From positions 1 to 64,000 of IMG/VR virus record IMGVR_UViG_3300030012_004234: DNA of 64,000 bases; one strand, given 5' to 3'. Source of the stretch: a virus. Positions 9,046-37,567 of the stretch are shown one piece after another; within the stretch, counting starts at the first letter, position 1; each line of letters begins with the position of its first letter. The notes under the pieces were generated by a model. The model saw only the letters and a program-made list of their open reading frames with translations, made no database searches and was not told the DNA's origin. Position numbers and translations under genes: made by a program.

Positions 9046-9489
9046 TTATACGTAATCCATTATATTATCACTGCATATGCCGATATAATCTTTTAATTCC
9101 TCTTTTGGTAATTCCGGCATTACAGTTATTGCGTTCTCACATTTTACTCCTGGGTAAGCCCATATGTACCCTTTTGAAGTTAATGTTAATTTATCATCCT
9201 CATGCCAAAAGTAATTTAAGTATACCCCTCCTCTATCGATTTCAACTAATTTATTCATAGCATCTATATTCTTACAGTGTATCCATAAGCTTCTATGAAT
9301 ATTTTGAAACCATTCAAAAGGTATAGCATATTGAGGTTCATCATGACCTAAATAGAACTTATTGTTCTTAAACCAAAAATCTACTTCTACTTGAAAACCA
9401 GTTCTTATAGCATTAGTTATATAAGAAGGTTTATTTTCATTAGAAGGGTCTGGTCCGTTTATATTGCCTCTATGTGAGATTAAAATCAT
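9046..9489 (-). CDS. Glycerophosphodiester phosphodiesterase-like protein (short)
   Basis: A 147-residue protein with the first elements of the GDPD TIM-barrel family. An N-terminal ISHRGN (HRG) is followed by PSYITNAI, VEVDFWF (the E-x-D pair) and FYLGHDEPQY with a His. Full-length GDPDs are about 240-300 residues, so the barrel is incomplete or reduced. Such short versions occur in surface polysaccharide loci. It overlaps the upstream HAD-nucleotidyltransferase gene by four bases. A role in cleaving or transferring a phosphodiester-linked substituent is inference. Confidence 0.6.
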   Translation of the reverse strand: MILISHRGNINGPDPSNENKPSYITNAIRTGFQVEVDFWFKNNKFYLGHDEPQYAIPFEWFQNIHRSLWIHCKNIDAMNKLVEIDRGGVYLNYFWHEDDKLTLTSKGYIWAYPGVKCENAITVMPELPKEELKDYIGICSDNIMDYV

Positions 9490-10862
9490 TTATAATTTTC
9501 TAAGTAATTTTTAAGATCTTCGGGTGTACCTAATCCCCACATTTTTTCTATATTAAAAGTCCTAATTATTTTATTATCTTTTATAGCTTGATTAAAAACT
9601 GGGCAAACATAAAATTCATTATTTACTCTAATATCCTCATCTATCATTTCTTCAGCATACTTAACAAAATCTGATCCTTTTTTCCAATAATAAAATCCTA
9701 CTGTGGCAATATCGGAAATAGGCTTTTTCTCTGCTACTTCAGTTACTACTCCTTTATCATTAAGTTTAGCAAAACTCCATTTAGGGTGTGTAGCTTTAAA
9801 TGTAACTATTCCTCCATCAGAATCAGTTTCATTCATTTTATACAGAAATTCAGTAGAATCCCATTCAACAAATTGATCTGAGTTCGCAAAGAATAAAGGG
9901 CTATCATTATTTATATATTCTTTTGCTAATAATGCAGTACATGCTGCTCCTTCAGTTACTCCTTGAGTTTCTACTATTTTGCATCCAGGGGTAATTAGAT
10001 TAAGTAAAGTATCTAAATTATACTTTTCTCTGTGCTCTTTTTGAACTACATAAATATAATTTGCTTTTATGTTTAAATTATCAGTTACTACTTGTATCAT
10101 TGGTCTACCTTTAACATCAATTAAAGGTTTAGGAAATGTATATCCAGCTTGTTCAAACCTACTACCTGCTCCAGCCATAGGAATTAAAACATTTAAGTTT
10201 TCATCTCTCCATGCTGGTTTGGATTGCTTTTCTCCTGAGTCAATACTTTTAATTTTATTCATAATATTTTTTGTTGTTACTTCAGTAGGATTTTTTACTC
10301 TAAGAATATAGGACTTACTTCTCGAAGCTGCTAATAGACCGTAAGGTGAATCTTCTATGATTAAAGTTTCTTCAGGTAAGCAGCTCATCATAGATATTGC
10401 TTTCCAATACATTTCAGGATGAGGTTTACCATTTTTTACATCTTCATTAGAAATAATTAAATCAAGGTACTCTATTAATCCTAATTTAGATAATACTGTT
10501 AAGCAAGTTCGTCTAATAGAATTACTACAGACAGCTAATTTAAAACCGTCGTTATATAAGTTTACTAATGTATCAATTAATTGCTCGTTAGGTTCTATAG
10601 TACTTAACTTACCTAAAGTTAATTGTTGCTTTCTTTCCCAAACCTGTTTATGTATCTCTGATGGTAGTCCTTTTTCTTTAGTAAGTAAGTCTAGTTTTTG
10701 AAAAGTTTTTAAACCATCATACTTATTTAAATGTTCAGACCAATCTATTTTATATCCAGGATTAACTTCACTTAATGCTTCATTTAAAGCATCAAAATGC
10801 ATATTCTTAGCTTGAACTAAAACTCCATCTAAGTCAAATATAATTAATTTAATTGAGGCCAT
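9486..10862 (-). CDS. Fused HAD phosphatase - sugar nucleotidyltransferase
   Basis: A 458-residue two-domain enzyme. Residues 1-210 are a HAD hydrolase of the beta-phosphoglucomutase type: motif I IFDLDGVLV, motif II around AVCSNS, a Lys in NGKPHPEMYW, then IIEDSPYG. Residues about 222-458 are a GT-A-fold nucleotidyltransferase: LIPMAGAGSRF, FPKPLIDVKGRPMIQ, and a metal-site region FFANSDQFVEWD. The second domain is clearly paralogous to the free-standing enzyme at 19603-20334. The fusion suggests two successive steps on one sugar- or polyol-phosphate: dephosphorylation, and activation with an NTP. The substrate is not deducible. It overlaps its neighbours on both sides. Confidence 0.82.
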   Translation of the reverse strand: MASIKLIIFDLDGVLVQAKNMHFDALNEALSEVNPGYKIDWSEHLNKYDGLKTFQKLDLLTKEKGLPSEIHKQVWERKQQLTLGKLSTIEPNEQLIDTLVNLYNDGFKLAVCSNSIRRTCLTVLSKLGLIEYLDLIISNEDVKNGKPHPEMYWKAISMMSCLPEETLIIEDSPYGLLAASRSKSYILRVKNPTEVTTKNIMNKIKSIDSGEKQSKPAWRDENLNVLIPMAGAGSRFEQAGYTFPKPLIDVKGRPMIQVVTDNLNIKANYIYVVQKEHREKYNLDTLLNLITPGCKIVETQGVTEGAACTALLAKEYINNDSPLFFANSDQFVEWDSTEFLYKMNETDSDGGIVTFKATHPKWSFAKLNDKGVVTEVAEKKPISDIATVGFYYWKKGSDFVKYAEEMIDEDIRVNNEFYVCPVFNQAIKDNKIIRTFNIEKMWGLGTPEDLKNYLENYK

Positions 10863-11659: not shown

Positions 11660-12493
11660 TTAATTAAATCTACCTCTGTAATACTTATGATTAAACTCTT
11701 GTTGTTCATTAAACTTATTCAATTCATTATACTGAGCGTACTTATGTAATTTACTAAAACGTTTAAGTTCAGAAAGCATATCTGTTGTTACCGATACTTT
11801 TCCATCTCTTGTATCATCTTTTTCAAGTACTGTAAAATGTCTTTCAATAACATCAACTCCTTGAAAAATAGCTAATTTAGTAGTAAGTAAATTATCTTCA
11901 TGAGGGTTAGAATGATCACTATATCCTATTTCGTCTAAATTAAAATAAAATTTATAAAAAGGTATGTTTTGTAAATTAGCTTTCTCTAAAGGAGTAGGAT
12001 ATACGCAAGTACAACCAAGTAAGCAGAAATCTATATTTAATTCTCTTAGATTCTTTATGGTATGTGATATTTCATCTAAAGTTAAACTTGATGCAGAAAA
12101 GTATAATTTTTTAAAATTAAAATCTTTTAACTTATTACCATAATCGAAAGCAGGAATAGAATAACCTGATAGTTTAAGATTAGTATAACCAAGATCATTA
12201 AAATATTCAGCATGTTTAGGAGTAAAAATGGTTGTCATAGATTCAACATTATACTCTTTACATTTTTCTATAAAAAATTTTTCATCTTCTTTACTTAATT
12301 CTAATCCTTTAAGTCTATGATACTCTCCTTCGAAAGGTCTAAAATTTTCATACTCAGATCTGTTAGTTAACGTGTCTGCTTTTATAGTTTGAATTTTTAA
12401 TATACTACTATGCTCTGAAGCTGATTTAATCATTGCTTCAAGAATTTCCATATCACCATTATGATTTTGACAAAGTTCACTTATTATTTTCAT
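11660..12493 (-). CDS. NeuB-family nonulosonic acid synthase-like protein (barrel only)
   Basis: A 277-residue TIM-barrel protein of the sialic/legionaminic/pseudaminic acid synthase family. It has ISELCQNHNGDM at the N-terminus, KIQT near residue 33, CTCVYPTP at about 161, YSDHS (His194) and IERHF (His219). The last two match the two metal-binding histidines of NeuB. Such enzymes condense phosphoenolpyruvate with an amino sugar to form a nine-carbon acid. The C-terminal SAF (antifreeze-like) domain found in most ~345-residue members is absent. With the CMP-sugar synthetase-like gene at 20638 it suggests a nonulosonic acid product. Confidence 0.78.
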   Translation of the reverse strand: MKIISELCQNHNGDMEILEAMIKSASEHSSILKIQTIKADTLTNRSEYENFRPFEGEYHRLKGLELSKEDEKFFIEKCKEYNVESMTTIFTPKHAEYFNDLGYTNLKLSGYSIPAFDYGNKLKDFNFKKLYFSASSLTLDEISHTIKNLRELNIDFCLLGCTCVYPTPLEKANLQNIPFYKFYFNLDEIGYSDHSNPHEDNLLTTKLAIFQGVDVIERHFTVLEKDDTRDGKVSVTTDMLSELKRFSKLHKYAQYNELNKFNEQQEFNHKYYRGRFN

Positions 12494-13344: not shown

Positions 13345-13345
13345 C

Positions 13346-13873
13346 TTATATATGTTCTTTAGGTTGAACTATATGATATTTTTTATCTAAAAGTTTATTA
13401 TAATAATTTACACACCCGTTACGTCCATCTATAAAGTAATGAACTGGTTTATTAGTATGTTCAATTATTTTTTCAATATTGGTAGTTACGTTAGAAGGAC
13501 AGTTAGTATCAGTTAAATGTACTCTATAATCTGGTCCGTCTAAGACTACTAACTCTACGTCTTCAATTTCTTCTATATTATGATTATAACTTACGTACCC
13601 TAACGTCTTATCTTCCATTTTTATATCTACTAATTTAACTACTTCTTTATATTCAGGAAAAACGTTACTAAATTCATTATACCATTCTTCCGAATCTTCA
13701 TATGCTATTAGTCTACCACCGTAATTAAGTTCTTGTAAGCATTCATATAGGTAATAAGTACTTTCACCTGTTCCATATTCTACAACTAGCTTAGGTTTGT
13801 TTAATTTTATGAAATCAAAAGCTTTTCTATATTTTAAAAAATCGTAGTAATGAGTATGTAATTGATAAATCAT
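13346..13873 (-). CDS. Class I SAM methyltransferase-like protein
   Basis: A 175-residue protein. After strand 1 it has VVEYGTGESTYYL, which looks like the SAM-binding glycine loop (E-x-G-x-G-x-S). Acidic LIAYEDS follows at the end of strand 2, and VELVVLDGPDYR is a typical strand-4 region (D-G-P). The size suits a minimal Rossmann methyltransferase. It would probably methylate a sugar or cassette intermediate in the cytosol. It overlaps the dehydrogenase gene by four bases. An alternative is a SAM-fold protein without methyltransferase activity. Confidence 0.55.
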   Translation of the reverse strand: MIYQLHTHYYDFLKYRKAFDFIKLNKPKLVVEYGTGESTYYLYECLQELNYGGRLIAYEDSEEWYNEFSNVFPEYKEVVKLVDIKMEDKTLGYVSYNHNIEEIEDVELVVLDGPDYRVHLTDTNCPSNVTTNIEKIIEHTNKPVHYFIDGRNGCVNYYNKLLDKKYHIVQPKEHI

Positions 13874-14691
13874 AATATTTTTTCTATAACTCTTTTATAT
13901 GCTTTTTCTTGAGCACTTATTCCAGTTCCTCCTATATGAGGGGTAATTAATATACGAGGATCAGAGGTGACTTTTAATTCAGTAGCTTTAGCGGTATACT
14001 CTTCTTTTATAACATCTGTTGCATAACCTAAAACTTTACCTTCACTTATTTCATCTAATAAATCATTTTCGTTTATAACTTCTCCTCTAGATGTATTTAC
14101 TATAAATATATTTTTTTTAAATTTATTTATGTATTCTTTATTAATAAAGTCTATATTTCTATCTTCTAAATTAATGTTAATACTTAAAAAATCAGTTTCA
14201 TCAAAAAAATCATCATCAGTAAATTGATCATCACTTATTCTTATATTTTTAAAAATTGGTTCGCATATATCATATAACATTTTACCTAATCTACCGTATC
14301 CTAATATTCCTAAAGTTTTTTCTTTTAATTCATCTATTTTACCTACAACTCTAGGAATAGAAAGCATAAGATATAAATTATGTTCAGCGGTTGAAGTTAT
14401 ACTTTTTAATATTTCGTCATTTTTAATATCTATAACCGGTATTGATTTTATATCTATATGATTAGTTCCAGTAGATGGAGAAATAATACCCTTTAGGTTT
14501 AACCCTTCTATATGTTTTTCAGATAAGGTATACCTAAGGTAGTTAGGAGCTGCAAATAAATAATCAATTCCTTTGAATATTTTAAGTTCTTCTTTTTTTA
14601 CATTTAATAAGTTTAAAGCTTTAAATTTACCTTTAATAAAATTATTAAAATTAGGAAGGTGTTGATATGGGGTTAAAAATCCTATAGTCAT
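13870..14691 (-). CDS. D-isomer-specific 2-hydroxyacid dehydrogenase
   Basis: A 273-residue protein with the C-terminal NAD-binding hallmarks of the family: GILGYGRLGKML (about residues 148-159), FIVNTSRGEVINENDL with the catalytic Arg region, GYATDV, and ITPHIGG with the catalytic His. The N-terminal substrate domain is shorter than in the usual 310-400-residue enzymes. It interconverts a 2-hydroxy acid and a 2-keto acid with NAD(H). Here it may feed a carboxylated or amino building block together with the aminotransferase two genes upstream. Co-occurrence is seen; the pathway is inferred. Confidence 0.78.
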   Translation of the reverse strand: MTIGFLTPYQHLPNFNNFIKGKFKALNLLNVKKEELKIFKGIDYLFAAPNYLRYTLSEKHIEGLNLKGIISPSTGTNHIDIKSIPVIDIKNDEILKSITSTAEHNLYLMLSIPRVVGKIDELKEKTLGILGYGRLGKMLYDICEPIFKNIRISDDQFTDDDFFDETDFLSININLEDRNIDFINKEYINKFKKNIFIVNTSRGEVINENDLLDEISEGKVLGYATDVIKEEYTAKATELKVTSDPRILITPHIGGTGISAQEKAYKRVIEKIL

Positions 14692-16052
14692 GTTTTAAAA
14701 AAATTATCAGTTAAAATATACTCTTTATAATTTTTACCAGATTTCCAATATTCGTGTTCACAATTTACAATACAAATACTACTATCTTTATTTTTACTAA
14801 TCGTATAAGAACTAGGTATACAAAATAAAAGTTCAAATATATTTCTTTGAAATGTTTTTATATTGGATTTAAATATTATGCATATTCCTTTATTATTATT
14901 TAACTTTACTATTTTTTTAGTATCATTTATATTATTGCTTTTTATAACTTTAAAATCAAAACCAGTATAATTAGGGTTTTTAGAAAGCCTAAACAATTCA
15001 AGATACTTTTTTAAATATACTATTTCTTCTTTATCAAAATTATTTTTTAGATAATGGTAATTACTCCTAATTGTATCATTATAATTTGAAGATTTTTCTA
15101 AAGAAAAATTATCTGATAATAAAGTTCTCGTTACTTTTTTAATATTATGTAAAGAAAGAATTTGATTTACTACTTTACGTTCTCCTTCTTGTATATGCTT
15201 TTTTGTTGTTACTTCATTATCAGTATATATATTAAAACTATTATTAAAGAATATTTTACAAAAATTATTCATAGAAATAAAAGTATTAGGTAGATAATAA
15301 GTACTAGAATGAAGATTGGTTTGAGCTTCTAAAAGAGTACCGTGCTTTATATTATTAGCTTTTAAAATATACGTATCATGCTGTTCGTGAGATTTCATGC
15401 CTTTATCAAAATACGGCATATTAAAATCATATACAATAGGTATTTTTTTATCTTTTTTAGTATGTGAGCTTACACTATAAGAAGTAGGTTTATAAAAACT
15501 TATTAACTGGTCTACAGTGAGTATAGGGGTAATATAATCATAATACTTAAGATCTATAGTTTCCATATTTTTTTTAGAAATATAAAAAATTGTATTTTTT
15601 AAAGGGTCTCTTAAAAATATACTACTCTGTAATCTTGTTTGACCTGGATGAACTATTATACTAAAGTCTTCTAAACATTTTTCATTTTCTAAATCTAAAG
15701 TTAACTTTTTATTTCTTTTATTTTTTACACTAATATGAACTGGTAGATCAGTATCCATATTGCAGTCTATCATTTCATGTACAATATTCATTCTTTGCCT
15801 TAACGTTTTAAGGTAATCGCCATGATAAGTAAATTCAGTTAATCGTTTGTGAAAGGTGTTATAATCTTCAAAAGAACTAAAAAATCCATATCTATCATAT
15901 AGCCATTGCCCGCTTAAACTTGCTATTTTGTTGTCTAAACAACCTCCATCTTGTAGAGCAGCAGTTATAGGAAATCTGTTAATATGAAAAATAAAGTTAT
16001 GTTCGAAAATATAACTAATAATCTCAGAAGACTTATCTGTCAATTTGTACAT
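14688..16052 (-). CDS. Unknown 454-residue cassette protein
   Basis: No family recognised. The N-terminal half holds DGGCLDNKIASLSGQW and a motif-like SIIVHPGQTRLQSSIFLRDP near residues 130-150. The second half is Lys/Asn-rich and probably less structured, with several beta-prone stretches (KGICIIFKSNIKTF, DSSICIVNCEHEYW). There is no membrane segment or signal peptide. It overlaps the aminotransferase gene by 20 bases and the dehydrogenase gene by four, so it is translated as part of the same cluster. A sugar-modifying enzyme is possible but unsupported. Confidence 0.6.
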   Translation of the reverse strand: MYKLTDKSSEIISYIFEHNFIFHINRFPITAALQDGGCLDNKIASLSGQWLYDRYGFFSSFEDYNTFHKRLTEFTYHGDYLKTLRQRMNIVHEMIDCNMDTDLPVHISVKNKRNKKLTLDLENEKCLEDFSIIVHPGQTRLQSSIFLRDPLKNTIFYISKKNMETIDLKYYDYITPILTVDQLISFYKPTSYSVSSHTKKDKKIPIVYDFNMPYFDKGMKSHEQHDTYILKANNIKHGTLLEAQTNLHSSTYYLPNTFISMNNFCKIFFNNSFNIYTDNEVTTKKHIQEGERKVVNQILSLHNIKKVTRTLLSDNFSLEKSSNYNDTIRSNYHYLKNNFDKEEIVYLKKYLELFRLSKNPNYTGFDFKVIKSNNINDTKKIVKLNNNKGICIIFKSNIKTFQRNIFELLFCIPSSYTISKNKDSSICIVNCEHEYWKSGKNYKEYILTDNFFKT

Positions 16053-17067
16053 TCAAAAGATCTTTTATTAAGTTAGTATTTTTTAATTCTAAATCGTAAT
16101 TAAACTTTATATATTTACTATTATCGGAAAAATGATTAATAGTTCGAAATGAAACAAGATTCTTTTTAAATAATCCTTCTATTTCTTTAGAGTATTTTAG
16201 AAAAAACCAAGAAGATGATGTATCAATTATCTCATACCCTTTTTTGTTTAATCTTTCTACTAGTTCATTTTTAGCTAAGAAAGTTTTTTCAGTATAGCGA
16301 TTAAAATAAACTATATTATCCAAAATAAATTCGCAGTACTTTGCTGACATTCCAGAAAGTTCATACATAAATCTAAATTTATTAAATATATCTATATTAC
16401 TTTTATTACTTACTATATAACCAACCCTACACCCAGCAGCTCCGTAACCTTTTGAAAAGGTTCTAATGATAGTCAAATTAGTATATGTTTTAATTTTTTT
16501 GACTAAGCTTTTTTTATTAGTAAGCTCTATATAAGCTTCATCTATTATAACGTGAATTCCTGTATCTAATAATGTTTTAATTTGATCGAAAGTATAATAA
16601 TCACCTAGAGGAGAGTTTGGGTTAGCTAAAATAATAAACTGTGTATCTTCATCGATTTTATCTAATATCCATCTAAAATTTAATCCTTTATTAGTATATC
16701 TTACTTTTTTTACTTTACATTCATATAATTCAGCGTAAACATTATACATTGGAAAGCAGTAATTAGATGTAATAATATTTTTTCCTTTTAGATCAAAACA
16801 TTCAAATAGAGTCTTTATGCCTAGATCGGAACCTGGTGTAAATAATAAATTATATCCTTTAACTCCTAAATATTTAGCTAATTTGCTTCTTAAATTTTTT
16901 ATATTAGGATAAAAGAATATATCTTTTTGTTTTATGGAAGTAATAAAGTTATTAAATAAACTATCGGGTAAATTTAAATTTCTTTCATTTTGAGATAATA
17001 CAACTTTGTATAAATCTTTATTTTCTAATTTATTTTTTCGTACTATGTTATTTAAATGTTTTTTCAT
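16033..17067 (-). CDS. PLP-dependent aminotransferase, class I/II (HisC-like)
   Basis: A 344-residue fold-type I enzyme. FTPGSDLGIKTLF is the phosphate-binding region (~77-89). ANPNSPLGD (~148) and DEAYIE (176-181) contact the cofactor. TFSKGYGAAGCRVGY carries the Schiff-base Lys206. It resembles histidinol-phosphate aminotransferase, but the cassette has no other His genes. HisC-like enzymes in surface-polysaccharide loci can aminate small phosphorylated ketones; that role is a hypothesis here. Its start abuts the SGNH gene upstream (one-base overlap). Confidence 0.82.
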   Translation of the reverse strand: MKKHLNNIVRKNKLENKDLYKVVLSQNERNLNLPDSLFNNFITSIKQKDIFFYPNIKNLRSKLAKYLGVKGYNLLFTPGSDLGIKTLFECFDLKGKNIITSNYCFPMYNVYAELYECKVKKVRYTNKGLNFRWILDKIDEDTQFIILANPNSPLGDYYTFDQIKTLLDTGIHVIIDEAYIELTNKKSLVKKIKTYTNLTIIRTFSKGYGAAGCRVGYIVSNKSNIDIFNKFRFMYELSGMSAKYCEFILDNIVYFNRYTEKTFLAKNELVERLNKKGYEIIDTSSSWFFLKYSKEIEGLFKKNLVSFRTINHFSDNSKYIKFNYDLELKNTNLIKDLLNVQIDR

Positions 17068-18966: not shown

Positions 18967-19616
18967 ACTTCTCTTTTTTTATTCTTATTAAATAAAAATT
19001 GGTGAGGTTGTTTATATAGAATATTAGTTAATCCGAATTCTTTTATAATAAAAGCATGAGCATGATGACCTCCATTAGTCCCTTGCATTTCGTCGCTTTC
19101 TTTACTTTTAAAATAATACTTCCAGCCGTTAGCGTAAATATCAAAAGTTACTGATGTTCCTCCAAAGAAGTAATCAGAGTCTAATCTGCAAAGTCCTTTT
19201 TCGTATCTTATTTTAGAATGTGTATTTATCTCTAAAGGTTCATGATTTTGAGATTTTTCTAATAAATAATTTAATAAAGATTCAACTTCAAATAAAATTC
19301 CATTTCTAGTCCATAATACGTAATCATATATAAAATTATTTTTAAGCTCATAATCACTTTTTAATTTATTTACTCTATGAATTAAATAAAAAGCCCTCTC
19401 AGTATTATTTTTAAATTCAGTAATGTTAGGATCCAAAAACTCCTTACCTTTAAAGTTGCCAAAAGGTTTTTTATCTTCAAAATCATCCCAGGTACTAGTA
19501 AAGTAATCTATATTTAAATTCTCATGATTTAAATTAGCATAAATTTCATTTAAGGTACGAAACGTTCTTGTTTGCCCCCAAAAGCAAATTGCAATATTTT
19601 TCTTATTTATACTCAT
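18963..19616 (-). CDS. Glycosyltransferase-like protein (GQxRT / YD-V-R family)
   Basis: A 217-residue protein starting with IAICFWGQTRTFRTL, followed by IDYFTSTWDDF (~36-46) and YDYVLWTRNG (~100-109). These match in order the family also seen at 25938-26714 (CLSGQLRG, YFAHTWSY, YDLVVKSRPD) and 5624-6358. I treat these as GT-A-like transferases. The second motif here ends in RNG where the relatives have RPD or RTD, so the metal-binding Asp may be missing. There is no signal peptide. It overlaps the nucleotidyltransferase gene by 14 bases. Confidence 0.5.
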   Translation of the reverse strand: MSINKKNIAICFWGQTRTFRTLNEIYANLNHENLNIDYFTSTWDDFEDKKPFGNFKGKEFLDPNITEFKNNTERAFYLIHRVNKLKSDYELKNNFIYDYVLWTRNGILFEVESLLNYLLEKSQNHEPLEINTHSKIRYEKGLCRLDSDYFFGGTSVTFDIYANGWKYYFKSKESDEMQGTNGGHHAHAFIIKEFGLTNILYKQPHQFLFNKNKKREV

Positions 19617-20334: not shown

Positions 20335-20336
20335 AT

Positions 20337-28428: not shown

Positions 28429-29158
28429 TTATACCAAACCAGTTTAAATTATTTACTATTATATCTTTAATTTGTACGCAGCATTCTTTTGTAGGATGTG
28501 CAGTATCATCTGTGCAGTTCCAGGTTTTATAATTTATATTAATAATATTTTCATTACTTATCTTACTCTTTTTTGGTAGCTGTTGATGAAAATTTATTAA
28601 CTTATAATTATATCTATTTGATTTAAGGTAACTATCCAAAAAAGCTATATCAGCTAAATGAGTCTTATTTTGATTCTTTTTTAATTTATCATCATATTTA
28701 ATAAGCTTTTCATAATAATTAACAAAAGCTGTCAAAATTTCATTCAAACCTTCTTTATTTTGTAATATTTCATCTCTTATTATATCTAACTCTTCTATAT
28801 CAGTTGTATACATAGAAGAAAGTCTTCTCCATGAACTAAATTTTTCTTCAAAATTACTTCTTACCGGTACATGTCCAGTATCAGCTGGTGTTATGTTTAC
28901 ACTTCCATCTAAGTATTGTATGCTATATCTTGGAGCCCAAGTTAATCCTATTATTACTAAAGTATCTTTAGGATCTAACTCCTGTAAATGGTAAAAAGTA
29001 TTATATAGAATGGTTCGAAAAGACTGTCCATTTTTAGCGGTATTAATTAATTTTAACCTGAGCTCTTCAGCTAACAGTTCAGGCCATGTATAACCTTCTT
29101 CAATTCTGTCTCCTGCGGTAAAACTACAACCGTTAATATATAAATTTTTATATTTCAT
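28409..29158 (-). CDS. SGNH-fold hydrolase/acyltransferase-like protein (copy 4)
   Basis: A 249-residue protein with block I YINGCSFTAGD (Ser12), an early NTAKNGQSFRTIL (Gly/Asn block), LVIIGLTWAPRYS (third strand), and DTAHPTKECC near the C-terminus for the catalytic His. Like copy 2 it has G-C-S rather than G-D-S. It directly follows copy 5 with an 11-base overlap, so these two are a tandem pair. It is probably cytosolic. Confidence 0.55.
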   Translation of the reverse strand: MKYKNLYINGCSFTAGDRIEEGYTWPELLAEELRLKLINTAKNGQSFRTILYNTFYHLQELDPKDTLVIIGLTWAPRYSIQYLDGSVNITPADTGHVPVRSNFEEKFSSWRRLSSMYTTDIEELDIIRDEILQNKEGLNEILTAFVNYYEKLIKYDDKLKKNQNKTHLADIAFLDSYLKSNRYNYKLINFHQQLPKKSKISNENIININYKTWNCTDDTAHPTKECCVQIKDIIVNNLNWFGINGKYSR

Positions 29159-29990
29159 TTTTCAAAACTGTACTTAATTCTTTTGCCCATAACTCATGAC
29201 CTAACTCAGTAGGATGATAATCTATAAGATCGTCTTGATTATATTCAGATAGATTTAATAAAAACTGAATAAACGATTTTTTTGTAAAGACTTCTTTATG
29301 TATTCTTTTGTATTCATCTATAATATTATTTATATCTAATCTTTTTAATGTACTAGCTTCAGAAGATTTTTGATAGTTAGAAATATAACTTTCTATTTCT
29401 CTTGCATCAAATAGTTGATGTTTATCAGCATTAAATAATTCTTCTTTACTTTCATAAAAAGCATTAAAAAATAAATGACGTATATTTAAGGCTTTTAAAA
29501 AATTATGAAGAGTAATATTATTTAGACAATGTCTAGTGATAAATTCTTCTTCATGCCAATGATTTAAAGTATATAACTTATAAAAAGCATTTAAATCATC
29601 ACTTTTAGATTCCCAATGATCTAATTCAGCTGGGTATAAGCATTCCCATTCTCCAGTATCTTTTTCATTCCATTTATAAAAAAAATCTTTTCTTTCAGGT
29701 GATGACCATCCTATTATTACAAATATATCTTTTGTATCATATTTATTTTTTAATTCTAAAATATCGTTAATAGTACCTCTTAATATTCTATCATTAGATG
29801 CTCCTGCTACTGAGTTATTAATTACTTCTGTTTTTAATAACTTTCCTAACTTACCAGGCCATACTCTTGGTAATCTATATTTTTTATTTTTTGGATGATT
29901 AACGTGTGCATTATTGGTACCAAATAATTTAGGGTCTACTATATCACCTGCTGTCCAGCTATCACCATTTGTATAAATTAATTTAGCCAT
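29148..29990 (-). CDS. SGNH-fold hydrolase/acyltransferase-like protein (copy 5)
   Basis: A 280-residue protein. Block I is YTNGDSWTAGD (Ser11), nearly identical to copy 1 (NGDSWTQGD). NSVAGASNDRILRG is the Gly/Asn block, FVIIGWSSPERKD the third strand (copy 1 has VVVGWSSM), and DYHPTELGHELW the Asp-x-x-His region. The close match to copy 1 suggests a duplication within the cassette. It overlaps the LamG-like gene by 13 bases. An acyl-ester hydrolase or acyltransferase acting on glycans is the family-based guess. Confidence 0.6.
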   Translation of the reverse strand: MAKLIYTNGDSWTAGDIVDPKLFGTNNAHVNHPKNKKYRLPRVWPGKLGKLLKTEVINNSVAGASNDRILRGTINDILELKNKYDTKDIFVIIGWSSPERKDFFYKWNEKDTGEWECLYPAELDHWESKSDDLNAFYKLYTLNHWHEEEFITRHCLNNITLHNFLKALNIRHLFFNAFYESKEELFNADKHQLFDAREIESYISNYQKSSEASTLKRLDINNIIDEYKRIHKEVFTKKSFIQFLLNLSEYNQDDLIDYHPTELGHELWAKELSTVLKNEI

Positions 29991-30706
29991 TGTTTAGAGA
30001 ATTTAATTAAATGGTTATTATTATATGAATGATCTTTGACCTTGTAAGGAGATACTTCTTCAAAATTTGAAGTAAACATTATAGTATTATTCATGTTCTG
30101 GCTTACTTCCTTTACAAATTTATTATAGTCGTTAAAGAATAAATTAATATTATCGGAATCTAAAACTTTTTCTTGTAAATGAAGTAAATTGATTTCACCT
30201 TTAAATATATGTTGGTACTCTGGGGATAACCGATTAGCACATCCAACCCATGTATAGCTATAAGAATAATCTATTACGTCTTTCATTTCCGCAGTTTTAG
30301 TTTTTCCGTTAACTATCAATTCGATACTATTTTTATTTTTGATAACTACTACGTCTAGTCCTTTTTCTACTTCTTCTACGGAAGGATAAAAATCTATAGA
30401 CTTAACTTCATCTACATCTGGGTTATCAGTTTTTTTCCACCATTCGAAACTAACTTTGAGCAGTATATTGTTTATTTCATCTTTACCTGCTGTAAAAAAT
30501 AAACCTATATGCTTTCCATTTTTACTAAATAGACCTTGAGTAAAGAAAGGTTCTTTTTTCATACCTTCTAAATAGTAGTCTTTATCTGGTGTAAATCTCA
30601 TCATTAATGTAAAGTCGGTAGTTATTACATCATCAGGAGGATTAAAAACTAATTTATTTTTATTTCCTTTTAAAAATAAGTATGTATTTTCTTTATTTAT
30701 TTTCAT
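29978..30706 (-). CDS. Stand-alone LamG/concanavalin A-like lectin domain protein
   Basis: A 242-residue, beta-rich protein that fits a concanavalin-A/LamG jelly roll. It has strand-like TDFTLMMRFTPDK, IGLFFTAGKD, IELIVNGKTK (the typical N-G-x turn), and TWVGCANRLSPEY followed by FKGEINLLHL. The same signatures (GGKKGELDFFKGNIKEFSTF in a neighbour) occur in the lectin part of the GT7 fusions at 32118-34912. It may bind glycan or serve as a scaffold for the transferases. There is no signal peptide. It overlaps a radical SAM gene by four bases. Confidence 0.62.
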   Translation of the reverse strand: MKINKENTYLFLKGNKNKLVFNPPDDVITTDFTLMMRFTPDKDYYLEGMKKEPFFTQGLFSKNGKHIGLFFTAGKDEINNILLKVSFEWWKKTDNPDVDEVKSIDFYPSVEEVEKGLDVVVIKNKNSIELIVNGKTKTAEMKDVIDYSYSYTWVGCANRLSPEYQHIFKGEINLLHLQEKVLDSDNINLFFNDYNKFVKEVSQNMNNTIMFTSNFEEVSPYKVKDHSYNNNHLIKFSKQWLN

Positions 30707-32121
30707 CTACTTAAAGTCAAGCAATATTCGTAAAAATCAGCTAATTCAGGAAATGTCTTACAGAAATCTGTTCCTCTTCTTTCATCGTGTGCTCTAAAAT
30801 AATTACCAAAGTTTTTTCTCTGGTTAGTCATATCTTTTCTACTAGTCATCCAGTCGTACGATCTTTTTATTTTTTGTATTTCAACATCTGAAAATCCTAT
30901 CAATTTATTATCAAATTTAGGAGTACCTAAAAAGTCTGCATGACTTGCACACCTTAAAACTTCTCTATCCCATTTAGAAGGTAATACTTGTAATGTTTGA
31001 TGAGAAGGGTATCTTAGGTACGATGAATCTAAAAATACTGCTGAGATCCAATATCTATCAGTAGAAGCATATTCGTTTTTTAGTTGATATACTCCGTCAA
31101 TAAGTTTATAGTAGGAAGGTACCGATAAAGAATTGAAGGTTGACATAATAGTAATGTTTAACCTAGGACAAGCAGTAAGTAGCTTATTCATATTAGTTAA
31201 CCATCTATCAAAGATTAAACCATTTCTAATATATTCAGCTTGCTCTCCCCATCCATCAACCGATGTAAATATAATAAATTCATTAACTCTTTCTTCGTCT
31301 TCTATCTTTTTAATTTTTTCTATAAAATTATCTACTAACCTATCTTCTACTCCTAAGTTAGAATTAATTGCTAAATTTAATTTTTTATTAGGATTAGGAT
31401 GTTCTATAATATAATCTAATACTTTCCATGTATCTTTTGACATTAAAGGTTCTCCACCAGTAATTCTAAATGTATGTAAATCTCTATATAGATCAGGCCA
31501 CCATTTCCAAAATGCTTCTACATATGGATTATGCTCTCTATGATGAATAGGCATTTTATTATTATCTTGTAAGTATTTTAAATCGTTAAATTTATCATCT
31601 GTAGGATAAGCACCGTATTTTTTAGCTTCTTTTACCCAAGTAGAAGAGAAAGAAGGACCGCAGTATGAACATTTAAAATTACATGCATTCGAAAATGCTA
31701 CCTCAACATAACGAGGATTAAAATCTGTTCTCCAACTAGAATTAACTATTTCATCATAATGCGGTTTAGACCAGGATTCATTAGATTTGAAAACTCTATC
31801 TGAAAATCCAGTAGAATTATCTTCTACGTTCCAACAATAATCACACTCTGCTGGTCTTTTTCCTTCTAACATTTCTCTTCTTTTTCTTTTCTTAAAAGAG
31901 GTATTATGTAATGCTGATGGATTTCTTTTTAATTCACCTATAGGAATATGATGAGTAGACGGGTGGTGACATGAATGTGTCTGTCCCATTTGTAGGTGCA
32001 TAGTTACTTGAGTCCATTTAGCTAGACACATACCACATCCTACTTTATCTAACTTCTTCTTAGTATCTAGATAGTCAGGATTGGTAAACGAAATTTCATG
32101 TGCTTTTTTGCTTGAACTCAT
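30703..32121 (-). CDS. Radical SAM protein (phage twitch-type)
   Basis: A 472-residue protein with the cluster motif C147-NFK-C151-SY-C154 set well inside the chain, followed by FRITGGEPLMSKDTW (SAM-binding GGEP) and later IIFTSVDGWGEQAEYIRNG. The ~140 residues before the radical SAM core contain two Cys pairs (C29/C32 and C93/C96) and could bind an auxiliary cluster, an unusual placement. Proteins of this kind are frequent in marine phages but their substrate is unknown. In this cassette a glycan or fibre protein is the probable target. Confidence 0.78.
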   Translation of the reverse strand: MSSSKKAHEISFTNPDYLDTKKKLDKVGCGMCLAKWTQVTMHLQMGQTHSCHHPSTHHIPIGELKRNPSALHNTSFKKRKRREMLEGKRPAECDYCWNVEDNSTGFSDRVFKSNESWSKPHYDEIVNSSWRTDFNPRYVEVAFSNACNFKCSYCGPSFSSTWVKEAKKYGAYPTDDKFNDLKYLQDNNKMPIHHREHNPYVEAFWKWWPDLYRDLHTFRITGGEPLMSKDTWKVLDYIIEHPNPNKKLNLAINSNLGVEDRLVDNFIEKIKKIEDEERVNEFIIFTSVDGWGEQAEYIRNGLIFDRWLTNMNKLLTACPRLNITIMSTFNSLSVPSYYKLIDGVYQLKNEYASTDRYWISAVFLDSSYLRYPSHQTLQVLPSKWDREVLRCASHADFLGTPKFDNKLIGFSDVEIQKIKRSYDWMTSRKDMTNQRKNFGNYFRAHDERRGTDFCKTFPELADFYEYCLTLSR

Positions 32122-33527
32122 AGTTTAATATTAATCATTTTAGCCCAAGGAGTAAGTTTTTCTTCTCCTATAAACTCATATTTTACTTGTTTTATACCGT
32201 CTTCTTTATAATCTAACTTACCTTGTTGCATTTTAAGAACGTATCTTCTTTCGTTTGCTGCTGTAGTTTCTCCTTTTGCCCATTTACCGTCTACTAGACC
32301 TTCGTCTTTATGAGGTAAACATCTCATCTTTCCTTCTACTCTATGAGGTAAAATTGAATTAGGTATTTGTATTTCTTCTTGTTTTTCAATAGTATTTTTT
32401 ACTCTATGTATATTTTTAGGATCATTAAAATCTAAATCTATAACTAAATCGTCTTCTGGTATTGTATTATGTAAGTTAGCAACTTCATCTTCAGAAAGTG
32501 CTCTATCCCATCCAAACACTTTAGCTATATCTCCTTTAAAGTAAGAACCTGGGTGGTCGTCAGCAAAAGAAGGAGAATGTCCTAAATACATTTTATCTGC
32601 TTTATACCTCATTAATCTTCCTTCATAATTTAGAGGGGATGGTGTTCCGTATCCTCCTTTCGAGTCAACCTCTGATCCATTAAGGTATAAGTGGGAATTC
32701 CTATCTATATCATCAAATACAGCTGTAACCCAGCTCCATTGGTTATCATATCTCTTAACCCACATGTAGTTATGTCCTTTGAACATATTCCAAAACTGCA
32801 AAGATAAAGTTCTAGAATTATTAAATGCAAATCCATAATCATATCCAGGTATTCTTAAAATAGGAAACTCTACGTATTTATTTTGTTTATCACCTATTAA
32901 AAATATATTTTGTTTTTCAGGTTGATTATAAGCTCTACACAACATAGATATAGTATGAGATCTATGAGGTATGTTTCTTATACTTTTATTAAGTGGTATT
33001 TCAACTTTAGCAGTTCCATCAAAATGTAAATATTTTTGATTATTAAATGTAGTTAAAAATGTATCGTTAGTATATCCTTCTTTATAACATCTCCAGAATA
33101 AATCATCGTCCTCCATTCCCCAATCCCAATAGTCATTAGAATATCCATTAGTTTTTTCAACCTGTTCTTTAGAAAATACGACTGCACCACCAAAATATTC
33201 ATGATATTTAAGTTTATAGTCCATTTGCGATATCTTGGTTGCTATGTGTCTAGGATGATTTTCTGGAAAGGAATAATCTGCTCCTCCGCCTTCTTCGGGT
33301 ATCATATCAATATCGTGCCATACTATATAATCGCACCCTTCTTCTAAAGCATGTTTTGCAGCTATATTTTTTGTTGCTCCTCTGTTAAATAATTTATCAT
33401 CCGTTTGATGACAAAAATACATTTGAAAATCTATATTCCTATTTTTAAGATACTTACCTACTTTAGGAATGAACTCATGCATATGTAGTTCTCTGTCTCT
33501 ATACGGTACACAAACTCCTAGCTTCAT
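32118..33527 (-). CDS. GT7 beta-1,4-galactosyltransferase-like domain fused to LamG domain (copy 1)
   Basis: A 469-residue fusion. Residues ~1-150 match animal beta-4-galactosyltransferases: GVCVPYRDRELH, FNRGATKNI (47-55), HDIDM (71-75, the D-x-D metal site), EYFGGAVVFSKEQVEKTNGY (110-129) and YWDWGMEDDDLFWRC (133-147). Residues ~190-370 form a LamG-like jelly roll with LYLNGSEVDSKGG and KMYLGHSPSFADDHPGSYFK. The C-terminal ~90 residues are basic. It has no transmembrane anchor, so it is cytosolic. It would transfer Gal, GalNAc or Glc to a glycan. Its start overlaps the next paralogue by four bases. Confidence 0.8.
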   Translation of the reverse strand: MKLGVCVPYRDRELHMHEFIPKVGKYLKNRNIDFQMYFCHQTDDKLFNRGATKNIAAKHALEEGCDYIVWHDIDMIPEEGGGADYSFPENHPRHIATKISQMDYKLKYHEYFGGAVVFSKEQVEKTNGYSNDYWDWGMEDDDLFWRCYKEGYTNDTFLTTFNNQKYLHFDGTAKVEIPLNKSIRNIPHRSHTISMLCRAYNQPEKQNIFLIGDKQNKYVEFPILRIPGYDYGFAFNNSRTLSLQFWNMFKGHNYMWVKRYDNQWSWVTAVFDDIDRNSHLYLNGSEVDSKGGYGTPSPLNYEGRLMRYKADKMYLGHSPSFADDHPGSYFKGDIAKVFGWDRALSEDEVANLHNTIPEDDLVIDLDFNDPKNIHRVKNTIEKQEEIQIPNSILPHRVEGKMRCLPHKDEGLVDGKWAKGETTAANERRYVLKMQQGKLDYKEDGIKQVKYEFIGEEKLTPWAKMINIKL

Positions 33528-34912
33528 AACTTCGCTTTTATATAAATAACCCTTTCTTGCTTTTTATATTCAATTTCTTCAAAAGATAAGTTAGATAATC
33601 CGTCAGCATCCGTATCGTGATTATCTGTAAGTACTTCATTATTATATCTTAATTGATTCCATCTAGTAGATTTAGACTTCCATTTACCTTTTATAAATCC
33701 ATTATTACTATGAGCTAATTTTCTAATAGAACTCGGTCTTCTATAAGGTAAATACTCTAAATGTTTAAATAATCCTCTGCTTTTAATAATTTCACAATTA
33801 ACTATATTTCCTAAATTACCATTTCCTGATAAGTCTATTAAATTGTAGTCTTGTACAAATTTAGTATCATAAAAAGTTTTAAGAAAATTACTACTTTTAT
33901 AATTTTTAAAGTTCTGGGTTAAACTAAAACATTTATTATTATGCAAGTCTACTATCTCTCTTTTTGTAAGACATTTATTAAATGTAGAAAACTCTTTAAT
34001 ATTACCTTTGAAGAAATCTAATTCTCCTTTTTTACCGCCTAAATAAAAATTAGGCTGCTCATTATAATTAAAAAATGTAGTATCTATAGTTAAATTATCA
34101 ATAAGTTTACTATTAATGTATAAACTAACTTTTCTAGATATTTTATTATAAGTAACTGTTAAATCATGTGTTATAGGTTTAGCAGGTAAAATCTTAGAAT
34201 ACAAATGATGGTAACCTTGTCTGTTATCAAAAAATTCTACTTGATATCTACTAAAAGATGTATAATTTATAGAAAAATCATATTCAGGTATATTAAATAA
34301 AGTAAATTTATCTATATCTTTTCTATGATTATATACCGGAGCTTCTGGTGTAAATTTAATATTAATTGTAAATGACTCGTTAATATCTAGAGTATTTTTA
34401 CATTTAACATACGCGTCTACTCCATTAAACTTTAAATCCGTACGTGGAGGTAAACTATCTGTTTGAGATACCTGAACTAGAGGTATATCGTTTTTTATAC
34501 ATCTGTACCTTAAATCATCATCTTCAAACCCCCATCCCCAGTATACATTTGAAAATCCATTTATTCTTTCAAATAGATCAATAGGGAATAGGGTAATGCC
34601 ACCGAAATAATGTTCAAAGGGTAAATTATCAGTAGCAAGATGAATAGGAATATCAGAGTAGGAATAGTCTACTTTTTCAGGAAGCATATCAACGTCGTGA
34701 AAAACTACATAATCACACCGTCTTTTTACAGCTTCTTTGAATCCTATATTAAGTAATTTACCTCTATTGAATTCCTTATCATCATATTGTTCTACAACAA
34801 TAATATAATATTCGAAATCTCTATTCGATAAATACTTACTTGTATGGTCTATAAACTTTTCTAACTGCTTTTTCCTATTTCTATAAGGGACTATAACAGC
34901 TAATCTGTCCAT
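33524..34912 (-). CDS. GT7 beta-1,4-galactosyltransferase-like domain fused to LamG domain (copy 2)
   Basis: A 462-residue paralogue of the gene that follows it, with the same order. It has AVIVPYRNRKKQL, EFNRGKLLNIGFKEA (47-61), FHDVDMLPE (71-79), HYFGGITLFPIDLFERINGF (101-120) and YWGWGFEDDDLRYRC (124-138). A jelly roll follows at about 165-340 (VSLYINSKLIDN, FYLGGKKGELDFFKGN). The copies share the architecture but diverge strongly in the lectin part, which suggests different acceptor binding. The C-terminal tail resembles that of copy 1 (SNNGFIKGKWKSK versus DEGLVDGKWAKGE). Confidence 0.8.
   Translation of the reverse strand: MDRLAVIVPYRNRKKQLEKFIDHTSKYLSNRDFEYYIIVVEQYDDKEFNRGKLLNIGFKEAVKRRCDYVVFHDVDMLPEKVDYSYSDIPIHLATDNLPFEHYFGGITLFPIDLFERINGFSNVYWGWGFEDDDLRYRCIKNDIPLVQVSQTDSLPPRTDLKFNGVDAYVKCKNTLDINESFTINIKFTPEAPVYNHRKDIDKFTLFNIPEYDFSINYTSFSRYQVEFFDNRQGYHHLYSKILPAKPITHDLTVTYNKISRKVSLYINSKLIDNLTIDTTFFNYNEQPNFYLGGKKGELDFFKGNIKEFSTFNKCLTKREIVDLHNNKCFSLTQNFKNYKSSNFLKTFYDTKFVQDYNLIDLSGNGNLGNIVNCEIIKSRGLFKHLEYLPYRRPSSIRKLAHSNNGFIKGKWKSKSTRWNQLRYNNEVLTDNHDTDADGLSNLSFEEIEYKKQERVIYIKAKL
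33541..33548 (-). promoter_or_regulatory. TATTTATA motif inside the end of a GT7 gene
   Basis: The coding strand carries TATTTATA 13 bases before the ATG of the downstream GT7-LamG gene, but within the last codons of the upstream paralogue. It could start an internal transcript. The coding context and AT richness make chance occurrence possible. Confidence 0.3.
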
Positions 34913-35104: not shown

Positions 35105-35944
35105 TTAAATTTTAATAATTAATTTAGTTAAATAATTCCAATTTGAGTAATCGTTATAATTAATATAAGAAGTTTCTTTCAATTTTTCAACTAAAAAGTC
35201 ACTTTTTTTTATATTTATTTTCCAATCACTATTTTTTATAGCATCATACATAGTTTTATATTCTTCTGAATAAGAATAATCTTTATTATTATCTGCTACT
35301 TGTTTTATTCTATCAATACAAGTACTATCCCATTTAAAATGGTGTACTTGAGTAAAACACTCTTCTACGGGCAACCTCTTAGGATGTTCAGTTCCCCAGC
35401 TATTTTTGTTATTTTCGAACAAAGCATAATGCTGCCCCGATGTTATTTTTTGATCTCCTTTAGCTAACGTTACTTTGTTAGGACATGCTCCAGACATTGG
35501 ATACCTAAAGAATCCTCCTAAAGGAAATGTTTCGTAAATATTCGTTTCTCTGTCAACTTTTGGGAATATGCCATCTTTACCTATCCTATCTAAAAAACCT
35601 CCGGTAACAAAAGATTTCCCTTGTCTTTCACAGGATTTGACTATATCTTCAATATCAGTAGGGTATGCTTGTAATTCATCGTCGTCTGATATTATCCACC
35701 AATCGTTAGGTTTTTTAGCTCTAACTGTATTGTATATATCGGTTACTCTTTGCCAGTGGTATTTTTTATCAGTAACTACCCAAAAAGGTTTAATATTTAA
35801 TTCTTCTATTTCTTCCAATATACCATCAGTAGTATCTTGTCTATATACTACAACATATACTTTATCTACTTTATCCTCATAATGCTTTAACATATGAGGT
35901 AAAAGATGTGTGTTTTGACCTACTACAGTAATTAAATTAAGCAC
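35105..35944 (-). CDS. Glycosyltransferase family 2-like protein
   Basis: A 279-residue protein with a GT-A start (LITVVGQNTHLLPHMLKHYE) as in the GT2/GT92-related group. It has VYVVVYRQDTTDGILEEI, then WWIISDDDELQAYP carrying the D-D-D metal-binding motif (~92-95). A late VHHFKWDSTCIDR supplies a candidate catalytic/His region. It probably adds a sugar using a nucleotide donor. It overlaps the methyltransferase gene upstream by eight bases. Confidence 0.7.
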   Translation of the reverse strand: MLNLITVVGQNTHLLPHMLKHYEDKVDKVYVVVYRQDTTDGILEEIEELNIKPFWVVTDKKYHWQRVTDIYNTVRAKKPNDWWIISDDDELQAYPTDIEDIVKSCERQGKSFVTGGFLDRIGKDGIFPKVDRETNIYETFPLGGFFRYPMSGACPNKVTLAKGDQKITSGQHYALFENNKNSWGTEHPKRLPVEECFTQVHHFKWDSTCIDRIKQVADNNKDYSYSEEYKTMYDAIKNSDWKINIKKSDFLVEKLKETSYINYNDYSNWNYLTKLIIKI

Positions 35945-36698
35945 GTTGTAATAAAGTTAATCCGGTTGAACTAGGTTTTGATGGATGATTACCAGTATTG
36001 AAGAAATTAAACTGTTTCCATTCTGAGTTTATTTCTTTGATAAACTTTGGTGGTCCGTCAAAATATTCAAAATATTCTTTTTCATCTTCAGTAATAATCA
36101 ATTCTTTTTGAAATTTTTCATCAGTATCGTGAATCGAAATTATTCCATTAGGTTTTACTATTTTACTATATAGATCAAAATCATTTTTAACATCTTCGTA
36201 AGAATGACCAGCGTCTATATGTAAAAAGTCTATTTTTATATCTTGTTTAACAAAAAAGTTATAATATGCATTCTCTGTTGTATCTTTTATAAATCTAGGG
36301 ACGAATTGATATCTAAAAAAACTATCTTTATCATCATAATTTATTTTTCCTCCTACTCCATTTGCAGCGTCTACTAAATAGGTAGCTCCAATATCTCCAT
36401 GATTATAGTCTCTATCTCCTTCAAATATACCTTGATCGTATAAATCAATTCTAGCTTGAGTCATAATTCTAGGTATAAATCCTCCTCCGCTACCTAAGCA
36501 TACACAAACTTTAGCTCTTAATAATTGAATAATAGAATAAATTAATAACCCGTCTCCTAAATCGTAATCAGAAGCTCCGTGGGTCCATCTATATTTTACA
36601 GGGATAAAAGTTTTAATATCTTTACCTTTAGTATCCTTGATAAATTTTTCGTCGTTGGTAATAAACTGTCTAATAAATTCTTTATCTAAAATTCCCAT
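35937..36698 (-). CDS. Class I SAM methyltransferase (CmcI/Methyltransf_24-like)
   Basis: A 253-residue protein. The SAM loop is VCVCLGSGGGFIPRIM, an acidic position follows in ARIDLYD, and the strand-4 region IDFLHIDAGHSYEDVKNDF, then KPNGIISIHDTDE, is diagnostic of the methyltransferase group that includes CmcI and sugar O-methyltransferases. It probably methylates a sugar hydroxyl of the glycan. One-base and eight-base overlaps tie it to glycosyltransferase genes on both sides. Confidence 0.75.
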   Translation of the reverse strand: MGILDKEFIRQFITNDEKFIKDTKGKDIKTFIPVKYRWTHGASDYDLGDGLLIYSIIQLLRAKVCVCLGSGGGFIPRIMTQARIDLYDQGIFEGDRDYNHGDIGATYLVDAANGVGGKINYDDKDSFFRYQFVPRFIKDTTENAYYNFFVKQDIKIDFLHIDAGHSYEDVKNDFDLYSKIVKPNGIISIHDTDEKFQKELIITEDEKEYFEYFDGPPKFIKEINSEWKQFNFFNTGNHPSKPSSTGLTLLQRA

Positions 36699-37567
36699 TA
36701 CTTATTAACTATACTTGATAAATCTAATTTAGGTAAATTTATGCAATTAAGCAAATGATTTATCTCTAAATCGTAGTTTTGATCTGCTTTATTATCTTTT
36801 ATCCAAGACTTTAGCGGTCCATAATGTTTTAAAAATATACCTGATTCTTTCAATTTCCATATTCCTTTATCGTTATCTTTTCCCCACTCCCATTTTTCAC
36901 AGTCCCAATCGGTAGAAATTAAAGGTTGATACTCTATATTTTTTTTATCTAATAGATGTTTTAAAACTAATTGCTCAGCAAAAATTAAGTATTGAGGATG
37001 AGGTACTTCCATATTAGTAAACTCTTCCATAATTTTTAAACTTAATTCTGCATATTCATTAGTAAACTTATAATCAGGTAAATTTAAAAATGCAACATTG
37101 ACTGATTCTGTTTGCCATCTTGCTTTATAAGATAATTTTTTTACATATTCATCTAAAGAAGTTGGATAATATCCTTTTCCTACTTCTAAATTATGTACGT
37201 AGACTTTATCTAAATCTAAATATTGTTTTATAGGTCTGTAAATATGAGTATCATTATCCATCAGTATAACATGTTCTTTTACTGAGGCTAGTACTTGAAG
37301 TTTAGAAGAAGCCCAAAAGACGCTTTTATTTATTTTTCTTGGATTAGGAATAGGAAGTATTTTATGCCAAAAATCTAATACTTTTAATTTATCTAAAGCA
37401 TCTATAGTAATATCATCTGCATATAATACACAAGTATCTTCTGGATGATTTCTTCTCCAAAGGTTTACTGATGCTAATAATAGTAATACGTTAAGCTTAC
37501 TATTAGTATAGAAATCGAAAGAATTTTGATTATCTTTTATATTTTCTAAAACCCAAATTATTTTCAA
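36698..37567 (-). CDS. GT-A glycosyltransferase-like protein, first gene of the glycan cassette
   Basis: A 289-residue protein. After an N-terminal strand (KIIWVLENI) it has SVFWASSKLQVLASVKEHVI followed by LMDNDTHIYRP, whose D-N-D is the D-x-D metal site. QYLIFAEQLVLKHLL and a late IFLKHYGPLKSW (His) are typical of GT8/GT32-like enzymes. The start codon is TTG at 37565-37567; no nearby ATG keeps the first strand. It lies 21 bases after the stop of a fibre-like gene, so the cassette appears joined to the fibre operon. Confidence 0.65.
   Translation of the reverse strand: MKIIWVLENIKDNQNSFDFYTNSKLNVLLLLASVNLWRRNHPEDTCVLYADDITIDALDKLKVLDFWHKILPIPNPRKINKSVFWASSKLQVLASVKEHVILMDNDTHIYRPIKQYLDLDKVYVHNLEVGKGYYPTSLDEYVKKLSYKARWQTESVNVAFLNLPDYKFTNEYAELSLKIMEEFTNMEVPHPQYLIFAEQLVLKHLLDKKNIEYQPLISTDWDCEKWEWGKDNDKGIWKLKESGIFLKHYGPLKSWIKDNKADQNYDLEINHLLNCINLPKLDLSSIVNK

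What the first reader, a model, noticed from the sequence alone, without database searches (positions are those of the whole stretch)
9046..37567. A 30-gene glycan synthesis and modification operon inserted between fibre and sheath genes
Thirty genes on one strand are almost all separated by 0-6 bases or overlap, with no terminator seen between the fibre genes and the sheath gene. They cover precursor synthesis (NeuB-, NeuA-like, two nucleotidyltransferases, UDP-sugar dehydrogenase-like, aminotransferase), transfer (about nine transferase-like proteins) and decoration (sulfotransferases, methyltransferases, SGNH proteins, radical SAM). No flippase, polymerase, signal peptide or membrane-anchored initiator was seen. 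This favours a cytosolic acceptor such as fibre or capsid proteins, or a modified host precursor. A pathway of this size on a phage, joined to the fibre operon, would be a candidate virion glycosylation system.
Basis: partly seen in the sequence, partly recalled or inferred. Interest (0 to 1): 0.9.

Follow-up and report, generated by a model that had tools for sequence, protein, structure and literature searches.

The report
Phage fibre-linked late glycan-modification island
A group of uncultured marine tailed viruses carries, right behind its tail-fibre genes, a long run of sugar-making and sugar-attaching genes that is probably switched on together with the virus particle genes, so the virus may coat its own fibres with a home-made sugar chain, although which molecule receives the sugar is not shown.

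Summary
Window 9046-37567 has 33 same-strand ORFs of at least 80 aa plus a missed conserved 62-aa ORF, with joints of -20 to +5 bases except one 40-base gap, between fibre genes and an 84-aa gene plus the sheath of an uncultured T4-like phage (closest cultured relative: Flavobacterium phage immuto). HMM searches confirm the enzyme classes. Related marine contigs carry an island at the same place: a near-constant start (DUF6734, methyltransferase, GT2, 62 aa, two GT7 enzymes with an embedded pentraxin-like lectin domain, twitch radical SAM) and an exchangeable rest. A fibre-unit gene (FIB183) precedes the core in 56 of 57 informative contigs; the exception is decayed and cassette-free. Immuto and others lack the island. 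An octamer, TATTTATA, marks structural-gene starts across the clade; here it lies before the S74 fibre gene and the sheath, with none intergenic between, predicting late co-expression with the fibre. No initiator transferase, Wzx flippase or base-hydroxymethylase family was found. Virion (fibre) glycosylation is the best reading (about 0.55); host-envelope glycan modification is the main rival. The kind is known (pelagimyophage host-recognition clusters, cyanophage LPS clusters, mycobacteriophage virion glycans); the architecture and linkage are new.

The parts
39496..39503 (-). TATTTATA late-promoter-like octamer before the fibre/cassette unit
   Evidence: 78 nt before the S74 gene; similar placement in G001 (79), G003 (75, 36), G002 (31), G007 (38)
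38865..39425 (-). fibre protein with Peptidase_S74 chaperone domain
   Evidence: Pfam PF13884 5e-17
38303..38854 (-). 183-aa fibre-unit protein (FIB183)
   Evidence: core glycan genes follow in 56 of 59 contigs; two others end there, one has a decayed copy and no cassette
37589..38302 (-). 237-aa Ser/Thr-rich fibre-unit protein (FIB237), candidate acceptor
   Evidence: 25% S+T, 1.7% K+R; family aligned; predicted beta-rich fold, aa 1-153 mostly at high confidence, no solved fold match
36698..37567 (-). core: DUF6734 protein, probable glycosyltransferase (inferred)
   Evidence: PF20508 1.4e-8
35937..36698 (-). core: methyltransferase
   Evidence: PF13578 1.8e-11; present in 67 of 79 loci
35105..35944 (-). 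core: GT2-type glycosyltransferase
   Evidence: PF13704 7.6e-6
33524..34912 (-). core: GT7 (beta-1,4-galactosyltransferase type) with embedded Laminin_G_3
   Evidence: PF13733 3e-23, PF13385 4e-10
32118..33527 (-). core: second GT7 with embedded pentraxin-like lectin domain
   Evidence: human B4GalT1 8e-26; model pLDDT 88, fold matches B4GalT7/B4GalT1 and pentraxins
30703..32121 (-). core: twitch-domain radical SAM protein
   Evidence: NCBIfam NF033640, 355 bits, cut-off 170
29978..30706 (-). 242-aa protein, LamG-like by homologues, no Pfam hit of its own
   Evidence: homologues in 22 loci
28409..29990 (-). two SGNH/GDSL-like proteins
   Evidence: DUF6071 PF19547 3e-20 for 29148-29990
25009..28428 (-). 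four transferase-like or unknown proteins (425, 146, 258, 310 aa)
   Evidence: conserved in order in G001
24237..25007 (-). NDP-sugar dehydrogenase without UDP-binding domain hit
   Evidence: TIGR03026 9e-41 over 54-295 of 413
21300..24231 (-). exostosin-like, Sulfotransfer_2 and two further proteins
   Evidence: PF03567 8e-13
18043..21303 (-). CMP-sugar synthetase-like, HAD, nucleotidyltransferase, 217-aa protein, radical SAM/SPASM
16033..17067 (-). HisC-like aminotransferase
   Evidence: TIGR01141 7e-50, below cut-off
13870..14691 (-). D-2-hydroxyacid dehydrogenase
   Evidence: PF02826 6e-28
11660..12493 (-). NeuB-like synthase
   Evidence: PF03102 5e-33; TIGR03569 below cut-off
9486..10862 (-). 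HAD phosphatase-nucleotidyltransferase fusion
   Evidence: 47-68% identical homologues in Balneolaceae, gammaproteobacterial, flavobacterial and SAR11 genomes, several next to the 147-aa gene
9046..9489 (-). 147-aa GDPD-like protein (inferred), last gene of the run
   Evidence: phrog_34507 5e-31
8787..9041 (-). 84-aa gene in front of the sheath, retained in phages without the cassette
8697..8761 (-). two TATTTATA octamers before the sheath gene
   Evidence: positions 8761 and 8704; same distances in relatives
6933..8669 (-). tail sheath
   Evidence: phrog_23 5e-72

Best explanation
The cassette is the distal part of a late fibre transcription unit and encodes a cytosolic assembly line that builds a glycan, step by step from nucleotide sugars, on a virion protein made by the same unit, most likely one of the fibre proteins just upstream (the Ser/Thr-rich 237-aa protein or a neighbouring fibre). 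Shown by computation: gene content, order, conserved core, strict linkage to the FIB183/FIB237 genes, late-type motif pattern, lack of initiator and flippase families. Inferred: the core transferases (DUF6734, GT2, two GT7-lectin enzymes), methyltransferase and radical SAM enzyme act on the acceptor and first sugars; the variable part makes and attaches the outer, lineage-specific sugars; the result changes adsorption or shields the fibre.
For: Same-strand coupling to fibre genes. Same location in many contigs; G001 is colinear throughout with a few inserted genes. FIB183 followed by the core in 56 of 57 informative contigs; the exception lacks the cassette and keeps only a decayed FIB183. Distances of FIB183 correlate with the methyltransferase (0.64) and GT7a (0.60) more than with sheath (0.41) or tube (0.37), 12 genomes. 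Larger phages keep the core behind other fibre-like genes. TATTTATA: 14 of 21 coding-strand copies in 3% of the sequence (binomial p about 1e-16), copies before fibre and sheath, background density inside the cassette, conserved in relatives. No PF02397 or PF01943 in 11 phage records while 9 and 13 of 14 control genomes ring; no TM segments apart from one marginal hit.
Against: No direct evidence for any acceptor; FIB237 has no structural match to a known fibre, and its virion location is inferred from position. Soluble transferases can act on host lipid-linked sugars. GT2 distances do not correlate with FIB183 (0.01), and hub correlates with FIB183 at 0.55. Sugar gene homologues lie in bacterial genomes, as expected under the host-surface reading too. 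The window record is a 70.8-kb fragment.
Confidence: 0.55

Rival explanations
1. Host-surface modification: the enzymes alter the host O-chain, capsule or another surface glycan precursor, to block competing phages or to let progeny escape after lysis. This is the reading published for pelagimyophage and cyanophage clusters.
For: Same gene classes in pelagimyophage host recognition clusters, read there as O-chain modification (PMC7029224), and cyanophage LPS clusters read as outer polysaccharide production (PMC7824862). The HAD-nucleotidyltransferase and GDPD-like pair occurs in SAR11 and other bacterial loci.
Against: No initiator or flippase family, late-type rather than early expression predicted, strict linkage to a fibre-unit gene pair.
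Confidence: 0.27
2. Peptide or fibre modification that is not mainly glycosylation: the radical SAM paralogue arrays and methyltransferase modify fibre side chains, with sugars as a secondary layer.
For: Twitch radical SAM right after GT7a in 67 of 79 loci and up to six copies per locus.
Against: Three or four transferases in the core; sugar-nucleotide enzymes in the window and in many relatives.
Confidence: 0.08
3. DNA hypermodification by glycosylation.
For: Phage glycosyltransferases often act on DNA (general knowledge).
Against: No thymidylate synthase/hydroxymethylase family in the window record, G001, G002 (191 kb), G003, G005, G006 or G007, although found in G011, G014, G016; late-type motif and position in the tail unit.
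Confidence: 0.03
4. Opportunistic cargo or genome filler without a role in the particle (the 'stuffer DNA' option raised for cyanophage LPS genes, PMC3037559).
For: Large variation of the middle part between relatives.
Against: Intact overlapping frames, constant core, constant position, colinearity with G001.
Confidence: 0.05

Closest known systems
Pelagimyophage 'host recognition cluster' (PMC7029224)
   Same: T4-like marine phage; large variable island in the structural region with tail fibres, glycosyltransferases and radical SAM cassettes.
   Different: Described between VrlC and gp14; here between fibre unit and sheath in an Immutovirus-related clade, with a constant GT7-lectin/methyltransferase/radical SAM start tied to one fibre-unit gene pair. 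Published reading is host O-chain modification.
Cyanophage P-SSM2 / S-SSM7 LPS gene clusters (PMC3037559, PMC7824862)
   Same: Large phage-borne sugar-nucleotide and glycosyltransferase clusters.
   Different: Placed near hli03 and/or phoH, not joined to the fibre genes; GT7a and the methyltransferase of this window have no match in 50,697 phage records.
Mycobacteriophage virion glycosylation (Freeman et al. 2023, cited in PMC12619734)
   Same: Phage virions with glycans on capsid and tail tube.
   Different: Few transferase genes there (general knowledge); here a 34-gene run with its own sugar synthesis, and no glycan demonstrated.
Mimivirus/chlorovirus self-encoded virion glycans (general knowledge)
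   Same: Virus makes sugars and decorates its own particle.
   Different: Eukaryotic giant viruses, unrelated genes.
Flavobacterium phage vB_FspM_immuto
   Same: Closest cultured relative: MCP 70%, sheath 67% identity, same gene order and TATTTATA spacing.
   Different: No glycan run between fibre genes and sheath.

Membership tests
Phage-encoded virion glycosylation system | transferases and sugar-nucleotide enzymes encoded by the phage | tested here: met
Phage-encoded virion glycosylation system | genes joined to and expressed with virion genes | tested here: inconclusive
   joined by position (met); expression predicted from late-type motif only
Phage-encoded virion glycosylation system | glycan on a virion protein | not testable with these tools
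   needs mass spectrometry
Wzx/Wzy capsule or O-antigen locus | membrane initiating phosphotransferase (PF02397) | tested here: not met
   0 of 11 phage records, controls ring
Wzx/Wzy capsule or O-antigen locus | flippase (PF01943) and other multi-TM export proteins | tested here: not met
Pelagimyophage host recognition cluster | variable island with tail fibres and glycosyltransferases in the structural region of a T4-like phage | tested here: met
Pelagimyophage host recognition cluster | located between VrlC and gp14 | tested here: inconclusive
   island ends at the sheath; VrlC was not identified here
DNA glucosylation system | base hydroxymethylase | tested here: not met
   PF00303 absent from the window record, G001, G002, G003, G005, G006, G007
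GT7 beta-1,4-galactosyltransferase family | DxD and WGWGxEDDD-type motifs and fold | tested here: met
   alignment and model; lectin domain lies before a C-terminal segment whose GT7 identity was not confirmed
Sialic/nonulosonic acid pathway | full-type NeuB and CMP-synthetase plus dedicated epimerase/dehydratase steps | tested here: inconclusive
   NeuB and CTP_transf_3 hits below NCBIfam cut-offs; no dedicated upstream enzymes in the window

The most novel reading that the evidence does not exclude
A whole phage clade displays a phage-made glycan on a dedicated fibre protein as its exchangeable surface determinant: the protein pair and core enzymes stay fixed while the sugar module is swapped, so the particle varies its contact surface by changing sugars rather than fibre sequence.
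Probability: 0.22. Interest if true: 0.87.

Novelty: new variant of a known kind. Interest (0 to 1): 0.62.

Why it matters
Glycan genes in marine T4-like phages have been reported for years and usually read as host LPS modification. Here a conserved core, a dedicated fibre gene pair, a clade-wide late-type motif and cassette-free relatives give a concrete set of seven core genes and two candidate acceptors with which the question 'host surface or virion?' can be tested directly.

Tried and rejected
Nucleotide search of the cassette in phage records: no match. Protein searches of GT7a and the methyltransferase in phage records: none. Sigma-70 scans were at shuffle level and were dropped in favour of the TATTTATA motif. 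Fold search of FIB237 gave no significant solved match. PDB searches of the GT7a C-terminal segment, single and profile, gave nothing. A claim of a sialic acid pathway was rejected as unproven. A 12-TM hit in G002 was a shadow ORF of a repeat gene.

Full report
OBSERVATION. The record is a 70,785-base virus contig; the window holds terminase, portal, major capsid, sheath, tube and hub genes of a T4-like phage. From 37567 down to 9046 all genes read on the minus strand: 33 ORFs of at least 80 aa with joints of -20 to +5 bases, one 40-base gap and one 192-base stretch that holds a conserved 62-aa ORF. No tRNA is present.

ENZYMES. Precursor genes include a HAD-nucleotidyltransferase fusion, a second nucleotidyltransferase, NeuB-like and CTP_transf_3 proteins, a HisC-like aminotransferase, a 2-hydroxyacid dehydrogenase and an NDP-sugar dehydrogenase. 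NeuB and the NDP-sugar dehydrogenase are short and match only part of their families, so the product cannot be called sialic or uronic acid. GT7a matches human B4GalT1 at 8e-26 over residues 2-153; the predicted model (pLDDT 88, pTM 0.82) matches B4GalT7/B4GalT1 at 1.5-2.6 A over about 150 residues and pentraxins over the LamG part. The lectin domain is followed by a conserved C-terminal segment, so it appears to be embedded; whether that segment completes the GT7 fold was not shown.

RELATIVES. GT7a recovered 199 relatives, 80 kept. In the 79 loci where it could be placed, GT7b precedes it (at most one gene between) in 68 and the twitch radical SAM gene follows directly in 67. Contig G001 is colinear with the whole window cassette, with a few inserted genes, and ends at the sheath. 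G002, G003, G005, G006 and G007 show the same flanks with different middles. Across relatives the middle is of the NeuB type, contains dTDP-sugar and NAD-epimerase enzymes, or consists of radical SAM arrays of up to six paralogues. Of 40 sheath loci with at least 4 kb upstream, 26 show the cassette, 5 show head genes directly upstream instead and 9 are unresolved. Flavobacterium phage immuto, the closest cultured relative (MCP 70%, sheath 67%), has fibres, lysozyme, the 84-aa gene and the sheath but no cassette. In jumbo relatives the core sits behind other fibre-like genes, about 60 kb from the sheath.

LINK TO FIBRE GENES. A profile scan with the 183-aa protein returned 59 loci; core genes are found downstream in 56 and FIB237 in 56. 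Two contigs end there, and one, G015, lacks the cassette and carries a decayed FIB183 next to the 84-aa gene. G015 is a single metagenomic contig, so a misassembly is not excluded. Distance correlations are modestly higher for FIB183 with the methyltransferase and GT7a than with sheath or tube, but the hub is close (0.55) and GT2 shows none, so this is weak support.

EXPRESSION. TATTTATA on the coding strand occurs 21 times in the record, 14 of them in the 3% intergenic part (binomial p about 1e-16), mostly 20-100 nt before structural genes; the same spacing before sheath, tube, hub and tape-measure genes recurs in relatives and in immuto. In the window it lies before S74 (39503) and before the sheath (8761, 8704); inside the cassette only four copies occur, the number expected by chance, all inside genes. 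Five relatives have an intergenic copy 21-42 nt before a distal cassette gene. I read this as a late promoter; no transcript data exist.

ALTERNATIVES. No initiating phosphotransferase or Wzx-type flippase was found in 11 phage records while controls ring, and no multi-TM glycan exporter in 191 kb of G002. No thymidylate synthase-type enzyme is in the window record or its near relatives, which speaks against DNA modification. Host-surface modification remains the main rival and is the published reading of similar islands (PMC7029224; PMC7824862). HAD-nucleotidyltransferase homologues at 47-68% identity in Balneolaceae, gammaproteobacterial, SAR11 and flavobacterial genomes, several beside the GDPD-like gene, suggest that the sugar module is shared with bacterial surface-glycan loci; this does not decide the acceptor.

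VERDICT. Observation confirmed; interpretation partly supported. New variant of a known kind.

Noticed in passing
window 34912-35100: Conserved 62-aa ORF between the GT2 and GT7b genes, 55-87% identical in relatives.
   Followed up: yes
L029, L036, L050 and others, downstream of GT7a: Tandem arrays of up to six twitch-domain radical SAM paralogues take the place of the sugar genes.
   Followed up: partly
window 39503, 8761, 8704, 6919, 5598, 4563, 2045 and before head genes: TATTTATA octamer marks structural-gene starts across the clade, including Flavobacterium phage immuto; it is the reverse complement of the T4 late promoter core TATAAATA.
   Followed up: partly
L239 6001-6460 (contig G015): Decayed FIB183 copy with an in-frame stop in a phage contig that lacks the cassette.
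   Followed up: partly
window 24237-25007 and 11660-12493: NDP-sugar dehydrogenase and NeuB homologues that cover only part of their families.
   Followed up: no
L163 sheath gene (709 aa) versus window 6933-8669 (578 aa): Sheath length varies among relatives through inserted segments.
   Followed up: no
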